DNA from: an uncultured Alphaproteobacteria bacterium
GTDB taxonomy: Bacteria > Pseudomonadota > Alphaproteobacteria > UBA11222
Length of the DNA stretch: 64,000 nucleotides
Assembly (NCBI GenBank): GCA_947258435.1
Contig: CAMYID010000004.1
Coordinates: 1-64,000 of the forward strand
Direction of reading: 5' to 3'
Below, in pieces: positions 36,291-39,911 of this stretch. Under the pieces are notes generated by a model that saw only the letters and a program-made list of their open reading frames with translations, did no database searches and had not been told where the DNA came from. Numbering within the stretch: position 1 is the stretch's first letter; each line of letters opens with the position of its first letter. The translations under genes were made by a program, and so were the position numbers.

Positions 36291-36869
36291 ATGTCGCAAC
36301 CCGATCATCTGACTGCCCTTGATATCAAGCCCTTGCCGCGCGAGGCGATGTCCCCCGACCTGCGGAAATATTTCGATATATGCCAGGAAAAGCTTGGCAT
36401 GGTTCCCAATGTGCTGCTGGCCTATGCCCATGATGAGGAAAAGCTGCGTGGTTTCATGGGGATGTATAACAATCTGATGCTGGCCGAATGCGGTTTGAGC
36501 AAACTTGAGCGTGAGATGATCGCGGTCGCGGTCAGCAGCGCCAATCATTGTTTCTATTGTCTGACCGCCCATGGTGCGATGGTGCGCGAATTGTCCGGCA
36601 CCCCCGAACTGGGGGAGCTTCTGGCAATGAATTATCGTGCCGCCGATTTGCCTCCGCGACAGCGCGCCATGCTCGATTTCGCGGTCAAGATGACCGAAAC
36701 CCCCGACAGGGTGCTTGAATCAGACCGGCAGGCGCTGCGCGATGCGGGCTTTTCGGATGTCGATATCTGGGATATCGCCGCTGTCGCGTCATTCTTCAAT
36801 ATGACCAACCGTATGGCGGCCGCCACCGATATGATGCCGAATCCCGAATATCACCGCCAGGCGCGCTGA
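36291..36869 (+). CDS. AhpD-like peroxidase-related protein
   Basis: 192-aa alkylhydroperoxidase/carboxymuconolactone-decarboxylase-fold protein of the uncharacterised peroxidase-related type. The redox motif is C-x-x-C within HCFYCLTAH, with conserved flanking His. It probably reduces peroxides or organic hydroperoxides using a thiol partner, though the substrate is unknown. The start ATG follows GGAAGGCC. It is followed by a stress/iron cluster. Confidence 0.85.
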   Translation: MSQPDHLTALDIKPLPREAMSPDLRKYFDICQEKLGMVPNVLLAYAHDEEKLRGFMGMYNNLMLAECGLSKLEREMIAVAVSSANHCFYCLTAHGAMVRELSGTPELGELLAMNYRAADLPPRQRAMLDFAVKMTETPDRVLESDRQALRDAGFSDVDIWDIAAVASFFNMTNRMAAATDMMPNPEYHRQAR

Positions 36870-36975
36870 GCCTATTGCAGTATCGTCCCGACGCCCCAAA
36901 TCTTTAAAAGGGCATATGTTCTGAGGGATATATCTGCCCGCCACTGTTTCACTCTGGATGGGTTGAGGGATTCTT

Positions 36976-37542
36976 ATGACCGATACTGGCGAAAATATGG
37001 ATAAAGTTCGGGAAGCCGTTGGTATTTTCGATAATCCTGAAACTCTTGAAACAACAATTGATGCCCTGATGATCGGCGGTTTCGACAGGGCCGATATCAG
37101 TATCCTCGCCGGGACGGAGGCGGTGGAGAAAAAGTTGCGGCGGCATTTTTCCCGGGTTGAGGAATTGGAAGACGATGCCAATGCCGCGCGGGGGAACTAT
37201 ATCTCGCAGGAATCGTTAGGTGCGGCAGAGGGCATGCTGTTTGGCTTGCCGATCTATGTCGCGGCGGGTGTTGCCGCCGGTCTGGCAACGGCTGCTGGCG
37301 GGCCATTGGGCGCGACCCTCGCGGCGGCGGTTGCCAGCGGCGGTGCCGGCGCGGCGATCGGTGCCGTGCTTGCGCGGCTTCTGGGTAAAAAACACGCTGC
37401 GGAACTGGAAAGCCAGCTTGCCCGAGGCGGGCTGCTGTTGTGGGTGCGGGTCTGGACACCGCAACAGGAGAAAGTGGCGCTTGACATATTGTCTGAACAT
37501 TCCGCGCATGATGTTCATGTGCATGAACTTGCGGGAGATTAA
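36976..37542 (+). CDS. Uncharacterised protein with glycine-zipper core
   Basis: 188-aa protein. The N-terminal 60 residues resemble a small alpha-beta stress domain (AVGIFDNPETLETTIDALMIGGFDRADISILAG). The middle (about 85-140) is a Gly/Ala-rich hydrophobic glycine-zipper segment (AAGVAAGLATAAGGPLGATL), and the C-terminus returns to an alpha-beta motif (LLLWVRVWTPQQE). This layout is reminiscent of general stress protein 17M-like families. Function unknown; it leads a small group that includes an encapsulated ferritin. Confidence 0.75.
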   Translation: MTDTGENMDKVREAVGIFDNPETLETTIDALMIGGFDRADISILAGTEAVEKKLRRHFSRVEELEDDANAARGNYISQESLGAAEGMLFGLPIYVAAGVAAGLATAAGGPLGATLAAAVASGGAGAAIGAVLARLLGKKHAAELESQLARGGLLLWVRVWTPQQEKVALDILSEHSAHDVHVHELAGD

Positions 37543-37608
37543 CCGTACAGTGCATATGACTTGCGGGAAATCGCCGGTATGGTGGATATATCGTCCAGGA
37601 GATTTACG

Positions 37609-37878
37609 ATGAGCCAACCTGGAAAGGAACTTACCTATCTGGATTTCCGCCAGCCGGCGGACATCGTTATCGATCCCCGCCTTGATCGGGTGTCGAAGGT
37701 AAAACTCCTGCGCGATTGGGAGTATGACGCGCGGGAGATGGAGGTTGCCGAAGAAGAAGGTATGATAGCGCCGACACCGGATTTGCTGGAGGACATAATT
37801 GCCGCACTGCGCGTGCTGGGCGATCAGGATGAAAAATCATCGACCGAAGCACCGCCCACCAAACAGGGGGGCTGCTGA
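37609..37878 (+). CDS. Uncharacterised small soluble protein
   Basis: 89-aa acidic protein starting MSQPGKELTYLDF, with a conserved-looking centre (DPRLDRVSKVKLLRDWEYDAREMEVAEEEGM) and a tail ending GGC. No domain is recognised. The ATG at 37609 has an AGGAG ribosome-binding site. Its position between the glycine-zipper protein and EncFtn suggests a shared role in stress or iron handling (inference). Confidence 0.75.
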   Translation: MSQPGKELTYLDFRQPADIVIDPRLDRVSKVKLLRDWEYDAREMEVAEEEGMIAPTPDLLEDIIAALRVLGDQDEKSSTEAPPTKQGGC

Positions 37879-37948
37879 GATGGTGGCGGCTGAATTTTTA
37901 CGTTTCACAGATTTATTTGTTCACACTTTAACCCGGAGAAAATGAACT

Positions 37949-38257
37949 ATGTCGAGTGACGGTTTGCATGCCCCGCGCGAAAGATTGTCGGCCCAGACGT
38001 TGGCGATGCATCAGGCGATTGTATCGCTGATGGAGGAGCTTGAGGCGGTGGACTGGTACCGGCAACGGGCCGATGATTGCGACGATACCGCGCTGAAAGC
38101 GATCCTTTTGCATAATATGCGCGAAGAAATCGAACATGCGGCGATGGCGCTTGAATGGCTGCGGCGCAACAGTCCCGATTTCGAAAAGGAGCTGAAGGAG
38201 TATCTGTTCACCGAAGGCGATATTGCCGCGCTTGAGGAAGAAGCGACCGGAGGGTGA
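37949..38257 (+). CDS. Encapsulated-ferritin-like protein (EncFtn)
   Basis: 102-aa two-helix ferritin-like protein. The motif MEELEAVDWY and the EEIEHAAMALEWLRRN segment match EncFtn of Rhodospirillum rubrum; E30, E60 and H63 align with its ferroxidase residues E32, E62 and H65. EncFtn proteins form decamers of dimers that oxidise Fe(II) and deliver it into an encapsulin shell. Here the C-terminus ends after FTEGDIAALEEEATGG, with no obvious encapsulin-targeting peptide, and no encapsulin gene is in the window. A terminator follows. Confidence 0.85.
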   Translation: MSSDGLHAPRERLSAQTLAMHQAIVSLMEELEAVDWYRQRADDCDDTALKAILLHNMREEIEHAAMALEWLRRNSPDFEKELKEYLFTEGDIAALEEEATGG

Positions 38258-38324: not shown

Positions 38325-38363
38325 GCGCCCGCCTCCCGTAAAACGGGGCGGGCGCTGATTTTT
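38325..38363 (+). terminator. Intrinsic terminator after EncFtn
   Basis: A stem with arms GCGCCCGCC and GGGCGGGCGC-type pairing (one bulge) is followed by TGATTTTT on the plus strand, between encFtn and hisS. Confidence 0.65.
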
Positions 38364-38399: not shown

Positions 38400-39911
38400 A
38401 TGGCAAAAAAGAAGACATTCCGACCCAAGGCGCGGGTGCCGCGGGGGTTGCGCGATCAGTTCGCCGATGATGTGATGGCGCGCCGCGCCGCGCTTGAGAC
38501 GATCCGCGCAGTTTATGAATCCTACGGATTCGAGCCGCTTGAAACCTCCGCATTTGAATATGCCGATGCGCTGGGTAAATTCCTGCCCGATTCGGATCGC
38601 CCCAATGAAGGGGTGTTTGCCCTGCGCGATGACGATGATCAGTGGCTGGCGCTGCGCTATGATCTGACCGCGCCGCTGGCGCGGCTTGTGGCGGAGCATT
38701 TCGACGCCCTGCCCAAACCGTTCCGGCGCTATCAGTTTGGTCCTGTCTGGCGCAATGAAAAGCCCGGTCCCGGCCGTTACCGTGAATTCTTCCAGTTCGA
38801 TATCGATACGGTCGGTGCGCCGGTTATGGCCGCGGATGCGGAATTGTGCATGGTGCTTGCCGATGCGCTGGAGGCGCTGGGGATCGCGCGTGGCGACTAT
38901 ATGGTGCGTGTCAACAATCGCAAGATCCTGAACGGCGTGCTTGAGACGGTCGGCGCCGCGCATGGTGACGATCCTGAAATTGTGCAGAAACGGCTGACCG
39001 TTCTGCGCGCGATCGATAAGCTTGACCGGCTGGGTGTCGAAGGGGTGCGGCTGCTGCTGGGAGCGGGACGGCGCGACGAGTCGGGGGATTTCACCGAAGG
39101 CGCGCATCTCGATGAGGATCAGATTGCCCGGATTATCGCCTTCATCGAGGCTGGCGACGCGGATCGGACGAAAGTCTGCGCCACGCTGCGCGCACTTGTC
39201 GGCGACAGTGAAGTAGGCCGTGACGGGGTGGCCGAGCTTGAGGAAATCGACCATCTGCTGAACGCGGCGGGTTTTGGGGGCGAGCGGGTGTGTTTCGATC
39301 CCTCTGTCGTGCGCGGGCTTGGCTATTACACAGGCCCGGTGATCGAGGCGGAGCTGACTTTTGAAGTGCGCGATGAAAAGGGCAATAAGGTGCAGTTCGG
39401 CTCTGTCGCCGGTGGCGGCCGCTATGACGATCTGGTCAAACGCTTCAAAGGGGTCGAGGTGCCCGCGACGGGTGTATCGATCGGGGTGGACCGGCTGCTG
39501 GCGGCCCTGCGGCTGCTCGGGAAGCAGAGCGCGCAGCTTGTCGGGCCGGTCATTGTGCTGGCCCTTGATGCCGCAAAGATGGGCGATTATCAGAAAATGG
39601 TGGGCGAATTGCGTGCCGCGGGCATCCGTGCGGAACTTTACCTGGGGGGCAGCGGCATGCGCGCCCAGCTTAAATATGCCGACAAGCGCAATGCGCCGGT
39701 CGCCGTCATCGTCGGGGAAGATGAATTCGCCGCCGGTGAGGTGACGCTGAAAGACCTGCTGCTTGGTAAGCGTCTGTCCGCTGAAATCAGCGACAACAAG
39801 ACCTGGCGTGAAGATCAGCCGGCACAGATTTCGGTGCCGCGGGCGGCGCTTGTCGGTGCGGTGCGCGATATGCTGGCGCGTGACAGGGGCCTGGATGACG
39901 TGGCATCCTGA
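38400..39911 (+). CDS. hisS: Histidyl-tRNA synthetase HisS
   Basis: 503-aa class II synthetase. It has motif 2 ([32 protein letters not shown]), the HisA motif (GLGYYTG) and motif 3 ([18 protein letters not shown]), then a C-terminal anticodon-binding domain. It charges tRNA-His. It is followed by hisZ and hisG, the paralogous pair for histidine biosynthesis. Immediately upstream is the EncFtn terminator, so it probably has its own promoter. Confidence 0.97.

What the first reader, a model, noticed from the sequence alone, without database searches (positions are those of the whole stretch)
36976..38257. EncFtn with two uncharacterised genes and no encapsulin
EncFtn normally pairs with an encapsulin, with a targeting peptide at its C-terminus. 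Here no encapsulin is near and the tail appears too short for one. Two unknown small proteins precede it. They may form an encapsulin-independent iron-oxidising system.
Basis: partly seen in the sequence, partly recalled or inferred. Interest (0 to 1): 0.5.

Follow-up and report, generated by a model that had tools for sequence, protein, structure and literature searches.

The report
Shell-free EncFtn ferroxidase with new neighbours
This bacterium carries a relative of an iron-oxidising protein that is known for working inside an encapsulin shell, but here no classical shell gene or shell-targeting tail was found, and two uncharacterised neighbour genes recur beside some other shell-free relatives, so the shell-dependent picture of the family does not seem to fit here.

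Summary
37949-38257 encodes a 102-aa EncFtn (PF22277, E 6e-40) with the R. rubrum ferroxidase ligands, a 15-residue tail after F87, no targeting peptide, and no classical encapsulin found in the 95%-complete genome. It is not an oddity: among 63 class genomes with a strong EncFtn hit (385 searched), 14 have long targeting-peptide tails and all 14 hold an encapsulin; 49 have short tails (one cut by a contig end) and in none was one found. Short EncFtn is already described as 's-FLP' (3k6c), its shell question left open.

What my searches did not find in print is the neighbourhood. g1 (188 aa) is predicted to be a ferredoxin-like fold split by a Gly/Ala-rich hydrophobic segment, resembling ActD/YflT; g2 (89 aa) is a small helical protein of a wider family. 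Both recur beside short EncFtn in changed gene orders, in some loci with a second ferritin-like (DUF2202-like) protein. But only 5 of the 80 nearest EncFtn loci carry g1, so the partnership is not obligate.

Most likely: an encapsulin-independent ferroxidase in an iron/oxidative-stress cluster. Activity, decamer and any role of g1/g2 are inferred, not shown.

The parts
36291..36869 (+). AhpD-like 'peroxidase-related enzyme'; possible first gene of the same transcript (106-nt gap to g1)
   Evidence: TIGR01926 215.8 bits against cut-off 81.8; CMD PF02627; a like gene is upstream of g1 in congener L001. Co-transcription is inferred.
36871..36897 (+). 27-nt block identical in window and congener, between the AhpD-like gene and g1; possible regulatory element
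   Evidence: Two-sequence alignment with L103; function unknown.
36976..37542 (+). g1: 188-aa predicted membrane protein, ferredoxin-like fold split by a Gly/Ala-rich hydrophobic segment (about residues 84-135)
   Evidence: Sub-threshold YflT/ActD matches; model with strand-helix-strand at each end, mean pLDDT 53; ActD 6btm_D top Foldseek row at E 0.19 and VIA Z 9.0, level with PII proteins; hydropathy and dN/dS 0.07
37609..37878 (+). g2: 89-aa predicted helical protein with motif W-x-Y-D-x-x-E-x-x-V-A-E-E-E-G-M and a C-terminal P-x-K
   Evidence: No Pfam family at E<=1; one chance-level NCBIfam match far below its cut-off; no PHROG or PADLOC family; conserved motif in 5 of 5 aligned; homologues in 35 of 385 class genomes at E<=0.01; model pLDDT 77; dN/dS 0.18
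37949..38257 (+). Short EncFtn (s-FLP type), 102 aa, no targeting peptide
   Evidence: PF22277 E 6.2e-40; PDB matches 7oe2, 5n5f, 3k6c, 5da5; tail 15 residues
38036..38038 (+). Codon of E30 (R. rubrum E32, ferroxidase-centre ligand)
   Evidence: Ungapped +2 alignment to 5da5; residue role from a passage of PMC5012862
38126..38137 (+). Codons E60 to H63 (R. rubrum E62 and H65, ferroxidase-centre ligands)
   Evidence: E62A abolishes activity in R. rubrum (passage)
38335..38352 (+). Terminator-like hairpin after EncFtn; weak
   Evidence: 2 found in the region against 2.0 expected in shuffles

Best explanation
A short, encapsulin-independent EncFtn (about 0.85 for this part). By homology it should form dimers and probably the D5 decamer ring, bind two irons between subunits and oxidise Fe2+ with O2. 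It is not loaded into a classical shell: it has no targeting peptide and no such shell gene was found. Oxidised iron more likely ends in the cell's ordinary ferritin-domain protein, or the protein mainly removes Fe2+ under stress. g1 and g2 are functionally linked accessory proteins (about 0.55): g1 a small inner-membrane protein whose two ends form one ActD/PII-like domain facing the cytosol, g2 a small stress-type helical protein. Shown: sequence family, conserved ligands, no classical encapsulin found, recurrent linkage, purifying selection. Inferred: oligomer, activity, membrane placement, operon, fate of the iron, physiological role.
For: EncFtn family and residues E30, E60, H63, Y37 plus entry-site E29 and E32, all invariant in 10 of 10 aligned clade members. 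No PF04454 in the genome. Of 63 strong class hits, 14 of 14 long-tail genomes have encapsulin and 0 of 49 short-tail ones do, Fisher P 3e-14. Of the 80 nearest loci, 77 have short tails without encapsulin in the locus and 3 long tails with it. g1, g2 and EncFtn linked in differing orders: g1-g2-Enc (window, L103), Enc-DUF2202L-g2-g1 (L107), g2-g1-Enc-DUF2202L (L143), g1-Enc-DUF2202L (L134), g1-Enc (L125), Enc-g1 (G142). Four g1-bearing loci besides the congener among 79, against 0.03 expected under random placement. A ferritin-domain protein and a rubrerythrin lie elsewhere in the genome.
Against: R. rubrum EncFtn alone gave precipitate and aggregated on iron addition, and a review states that EncFtn need encapsulin to keep mineral soluble; what a shell-free form does with Fe3+ is unexplained. 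g1 accompanies only 5 of the 80 nearest EncFtn loci (26 of the 80 have shortened flanks). g2 homologues are in 35 of 385 class genomes, mostly away from EncFtn. EncFtn is patchy in the window's own family: 4 of 6 genomes, one of them (G005) with the classical tail and encapsulin. The g1 model is weak overall.
Confidence: 0.62

Rival explanations
1. The neighbours are incidental: EncFtn works alone, and g1 and g2 are general stress proteins that merely sit nearby.
For: Only 5 of the 80 nearest EncFtn loci carry g1. A g2 homologue lies beside a Dps/ferritin-domain gene elsewhere (L072), most others beside unrelated genes. g1 at E<=1e-25 is in 20 class genomes without a short EncFtn.
Against: Linkage recurs on several branches with changed gene order and exceeds chance under random placement. 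Genome-level co-occurrence of g1 with short EncFtn is enriched, 15 of 49 (window included) against 20 of 336, Fisher P 2e-6, relatedness and genome size not corrected for.
Confidence: 0.3
2. A shell exists but is not recognised (family-2 encapsulin or an unrelated capsid), and the short C-terminus is an uncharacterised targeting sequence, as the 2024 review considers possible for s-FLPs.
For: The review lists LFTD(E/N)KPIAHE as a putative, uncharacterised s-FLP targeting sequence. The family-2 search had a silent control. The genome is 95% complete.
Against: The LFTEGxI stretch also occurs in EncFtns that carry a true targeting peptide some 25-35 residues further on (L058, L061, L195, L196, L198), so it looks like part of the folded domain. 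Seven single-contig class genomes with short EncFtn (G033, G126, G201, G207, G304, G314, G381) have no classical encapsulin.
Confidence: 0.08
3. The protein has left ferroxidase chemistry and acts as another di-iron or metal-binding protein, for example a sensor or an oxygen- or peroxide-linked enzyme.
For: The upstream neighbour is AhpD-like here; in other loci a 1-Cys peroxiredoxin lies near g1 (L008; a relative 1 kb from g1 on the other strand in L107) or a DUF302 gene near EncFtn (L147).
Against: Ferroxidase and entry-site residues are kept in the window clade.
Confidence: 0.12

Closest known systems
s-FLP (short EncFtn), Nitrosomonas europaea NE0167, PDB 3k6c
   Same: 95-102 aa, no long tail, no targeting peptide, aligned without gaps; 3k6c is a decamer according to review PMC11202242 (section read)
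   Different: By sequence likeness NE0167 resembles the 'MANEGYHEP...' class proteins, which lie apart from the window's group in my tree (NE0167 itself was not in the tree); the window protein has a slightly longer tail and g1 and g2 as neighbours
Encapsulated ferritins of Haliangium ochraceum (7oe2, 5n5f) and R. rubrum (5da5)
   Same: Among the closest solved sequences, ungapped alignments over 95-101 residues
   Different: According to PMC11202242 (table passage) those carry targeting peptides and belong to encapsulins; this one has neither
ActD subunit of alternative complex III (6btm_D) and YflT (PF11181), for g1
   Same: YflT matches 11 of 15 and ActD 7 of 15 family members at E<=0.01; fold match to ActD Z 9.0 over 86 residues
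   Different: Below curated cut-offs; PII proteins score as high on the fold; alternative complex III genes beside g1 were not searched for systematically
DUF2202 (PF09968), for the second ferritin-like protein of sister clusters
   Same: One of two such proteins tested passes the cut-off (L007, 26.1 against 22; L035 does not, 16.6)
   Different: Not found in the window's genome at E<=1

Membership tests
EncFtn-like (PF22277) | Profile match above curated cut-off | tested here: met
   135 bits against 27
EncFtn-like (PF22277) | Ferroxidase residues E32, E62, H65 and Y39 (R. rubrum numbering) | tested here: met
   E30, E60, H63, Y37 in an ungapped +2 alignment (roles)
EncFtn-like (PF22277) | Metal-dependent decamer and ferroxidase activity | not testable with these tools
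   Needs the purified protein
Encapsulin-associated FLP-TP (TIGR04535) | C-terminal targeting peptide | tested here: not met
   15-residue tail without a targeting motif
Encapsulin-associated FLP-TP (TIGR04535) | NCBIfam curated cut-off | tested here: not met
   122 bits against 125
Encapsulin-associated FLP-TP (TIGR04535) | Classical encapsulin encoded in the genome | tested here: not met
   0 hits, control rings; genome 95% complete
Family-2 encapsulin system | SrpI-like shell (PF19307) in the genome | tested here: inconclusive
   No hit at E<=0.1, but no control genome rang
s-FLP (short EncFtn) | EncFtn core without long tail or apparent targeting peptide | tested here: met
   definition from PMC11202242
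ActD / YflT (for g1) | Curated Pfam cut-off | tested here: not met
   YflT 17.1 against 26.2 for g1 itself; best relatives: YflT 25.4 against 26.2, ActD 18.6 against 25.7
ActD / YflT (for g1) | Ferredoxin-like domain with membrane segments | tested here: inconclusive
   Low-confidence model; fold match shared with PII proteins

The most novel reading that the evidence does not exclude
g1 is a membrane scaffold that holds open EncFtn rings at the inner membrane, with g2 as adaptor and, in sister lineages, a DUF2202-like protein as second ferritin-like partner: a membrane-stationed, shell-free iron-oxidising assembly that takes the place of the encapsulin compartment.
Probability: 0.13. Interest if true: 0.72.

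Novelty: new variant of a known kind. Interest (0 to 1): 0.45.

Why it matters
EncFtn is described as a cargo that needs its shell (PMC7762939, passage), yet in the class sample most strong EncFtn hits sit in genomes where no classical shell gene was found. That makes the open question about s-FLPs testable: how an open ferroxidase ring handles Fe3+ without a compartment. The recurring g1, g2 and DUF2202-like neighbours name proteins to test first. The tree also places a second targeting-peptide/encapsulin group among short-tail rows, which suggests that tail and shell changed together more than once.

Tried and rejected
Sigma-70 promoter and terminator scan of the region: counts at chance level, not used as evidence. 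PHROGs: no match for g1 or g2. PADLOC: only a LeoBC match to g1 at E 0.003, 14.8 bits, which I take for glycine-rich noise. The g1 profile against PDB sequences gave designed TIM barrels (E 2e-5 to 6e-5) and weaker chains; rejected as composition-driven, my judgement. The g2 fold search gave no match at E<=0.001. DUF2202-like partner in the window's own genome: none at E<=1 (the tool warns that an empty answer without a positive control shows little, though the same profile matched 12 of 385 class genomes).

Circularity. Alignment A5 (DUF2202-like) was seeded from five loci found beside g1 or EncFtn; of its seven strong class hits (E<1e-25) four are seeds (G121, G206, G344, G164). Of the other three, G142 is linked (a degraded frame), and G048 and G122 have no g1 or EncFtn hit beside them by the coordinates. 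L107 and L147 are linked and not seeds. A4 (g2) was seeded from window, L001 and L007; linked non-seeds are L107, L112 and L147 (only a partial g2 frame in L147); L152 has one 1.6 kb away on the opposite strand. A1 (g1) was seeded from window, L001 and L004; linked non-seeds are G121/L143, G142, L107 and L125.

Rows dropped or doubled. Ten weak PF22277 genomes of the 73 (two just over the cut-off, eight below) are not among the 63. 28 of the 63 g1 genomes (E above 1e-25) are not. L001=L103, L004=L134, L007=L183=L143 and L013=L205 are the same DNA and were counted once for linkage. The 80 loci and the class sample overlap: seven further tested pairs are the same DNA and L155 shares L051's, so the two sets are not independent; the tree of 143 rows has 130 different ones. 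Targeting-peptide rows with g1, g2 or DUF2202L in the stretch held: 0 of 17, short rows 12 of 126; P 0.36, no difference shown.

Literature. Of PMC11202242 I read two sections and passages; of PMC5012862, PMC8346489 and PMC7762939 passages; of the rest the listing only.

Full report
What is there. The window is C4:1-64000 of a 2.88-Mb, 24-contig, 95%-complete genome. On the + strand, before a gene that I recognise as hisS (38400-39911, name by recall), lie an AhpD-like gene (36291-36869), g1 (36976-37542), g2 (37609-37878) and EncFtn (37949-38257), with gaps of 106, 66 and 70 nt. EncFtn matches PF22277 at 135 bits against a cut-off of 27 and TIGR04535, the encapsulin-associated subfamily, at 122 bits, just under its cut-off of 125. 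g1 and g2 reach no curated cut-off. Against L103, which is the same DNA as L001 of a genome in the window's genus, all three genes are under purifying selection: dN/dS 0.07, 0.18 and 0.07.

Active site. The protein aligns without gaps to R. rubrum EncFtn (5da5) at an offset of two. Its E30, E60, H63 and Y37 stand where that protein has E32, E62, H65 and Y39, the ferroxidase centre, and its E29 and E32 stand at the entry site (roles from a passage of PMC5012862). In R. rubrum E62A abolishes activity (passage). Activity of the window protein is expected, not shown.

No shell. No PF04454 encapsulin was found in the genome (control rang in 3 of 14 reference genomes). Family 2 (PF19307) gave no hit, but its control was silent, so that is undecided. 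The tail after F87 has 15 residues and no targeting motif. In a sample of 385 genomes of the class PF22277 hits 73, 65 over the cut-off; I analysed the 63 strong ones. PF04454 hits 14. All 14 hold an EncFtn with a long tail (38-49 residues after F87, with SLGIGSL-like or GLTIGRM-like peptides); the other 49 have tails of 22 residues or fewer and no encapsulin hit in the genome (Fisher P 3e-14). One of the 49 (G345) runs off its contig and groups with targeting-peptide rows in the tree, so 48 of 62 complete tails is the safe count. Seven short-tail genomes are single contigs. In the window's own family EncFtn is patchy, 4 of 6 genomes, and G005 has the classical tail and encapsulin. Among the 80 loci kept as nearest out of 289 in the GTDB collection, 77 have short tails (25 residues or fewer) without encapsulin in the locus and 3 long tails with it; of the 54 with full flanks 2 hold encapsulin. 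That search used motifs of the short clade and is biased towards it; the class sample is not. The two sets overlap in at least nine genomes.

History. In a quick tree of 143 rows (130 different, 95 columns, 65 of 127 inner branches open) the tail state needs five changes. Eleven of 17 targeting-peptide rows fall in one open group with G345. Five more (Rhodospira, Roseospira, G038, G166, G263), with one short row among them (G328), lie among short-tail rows and have an encapsulin that is more distant from that of G005 (phmmer E 8e-22 to 2e-27, against 8e-74 or better for the other group); one further row (L157) does too. Support is mostly unstarred and the root is unknown, so gain and loss cannot be told apart.

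g1. The model has strand-helix-strand at both ends (pLDDT mostly 70-85) and a low-confidence middle (mean pLDDT 53 overall); residues 82-137 are 57% Gly or Ala, and 19-residue windows there reach a mean hydropathy of 1.8. Sub-threshold YflT matches appear in 11 of 15 family members and ActD in 7 of 15. The best Foldseek row is ActD, 6btm_D, at E 0.19; with VIA-align ActD scores Z 9.0 over 86 residues, level with PII proteins. I read g1 as a ferredoxin-like domain split by a membrane-type hairpin; this is inference.

g2. Three helices, pLDDT 77, no significant fold match. Homologues occur in 35 of 385 genomes at E<=0.01, mostly not beside EncFtn; one lies beside a ferritin-domain gene (L072). 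I take it for a stress-type protein; this is inference.

Linkage. Orders found: g1-g2-Enc (window, L103); Enc-DUF2202L-g2-g1 (L107); g2-g1-Enc-DUF2202L (L143, the same DNA as G121); g1-Enc-DUF2202L (L134, the same as L004); g1-Enc (L125); Enc-g1 with a degraded DUF2202-like frame beyond (G142); Enc-g2 (L112); partial g2-Enc-DUF2202L (L147); a g1 remnant before Enc (L123); DUF2202L opposite an NE0167-like EncFtn (L035). Away from EncFtn, g1 and DUF2202L are adjacent in L006 and have a 1-Cys peroxiredoxin between them in L008. In the class sample g1 (E<=1e-25) is in 35 genomes and EncFtn in 63; 18 have both and in 3 they are adjacent, against 0.02 expected (without the window 2 of 17, P 3e-4). 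Among 79 loci four carry g1 within 6 kb besides the congener, against 0.03 expected; L143 and G121 are one genome, so the two tests share a case. The figures assume random placement and do not correct for relatedness. Rows with g1, g2 or DUF2202L nearby need nine changes on the tree, which argues against one inherited block. Yet 75 of the 80 nearest loci have no intact g1 in the stretch held (26 have shortened flanks), so the partnership is optional.

Cell context. The genome also has a ferritin-domain protein at C16 (PF00210, 124 bits), which I read as bacterioferritin from recall; a rubrerythrin beside a Fur-family regulator at C18; and no DUF2202-like hit at E<=1. Ordinary iron storage is thus likely available.

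Against the literature. A 2024 review (PMC11202242; two sections and passages read) names short EncFtn 's-FLP', notes that they were first classed as non-encapsulated, and leaves open whether the short tail holds an undefined binding sequence. The stretch it lists as putative, LFTD(E/N)KPIAHE, corresponds to one present also in EncFtns that carry a separate targeting peptide further on, which makes a targeting role less likely. A 2020 review (PMC7762939, passages) says EncFtn need encapsulin to keep mineral soluble; R. rubrum EncFtn alone aggregated with iron (PMC5012862, passages). Shell-free forms therefore need another outlet for Fe3+, which this work does not identify.

Verdict. Real, and largely an instance of a described but little-studied subtype. 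What I add is its extent in this class sample, the exceptionless tail-encapsulin correspondence in it, and a recurring, reshuffled neighbourhood with an ActD/YflT-like putative membrane protein, a small helical protein and, in some loci, a second ferritin-like protein.

Noticed in passing
L055, L057, L060, L156, L172, L180, L182 (and L163): Directly after short EncFtn, on the same strand and overlapping it, lies an MFS permease (PF07690 for L057) in 7 of the 8 loci of this neighbour cluster (in L163 it lies upstream on the other strand): possibly a transport-coupled short EncFtn.
   Followed up: partly
L161, L166, L195, L196, L198: A second targeting-peptide/encapsulin EncFtn group lies among short-tail rows of the tree and has a clearly different encapsulin (phmmer E 8e-22 to 2e-27 to the G005 shell, against 8e-74 or better for the other group).
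   Followed up: partly
L109, L110, L120, L127, L129, L133, L141, L150, L151, L164, L167: Records titled Marinimicrobia, Planctomycetota, Anaerolineae or Myxococcales carry EncFtn that groups with alphaproteobacterial ones: transfer or mistitled assemblies.
   Followed up: no
L048, L052, L053, L054: Short EncFtn beside a glutathione-S-transferase-fold gene on the same strand (Pfam checked for L052 only).
   Followed up: no
window 36871-36897: 27-nt block identical with the congener in the gap before g1; candidate regulatory site.
   Followed up: no
L123:5696-6040: Apparent remnant of g1 (its C-terminal motif only, E 7e-4) just before an intact EncFtn.
   Followed up: no
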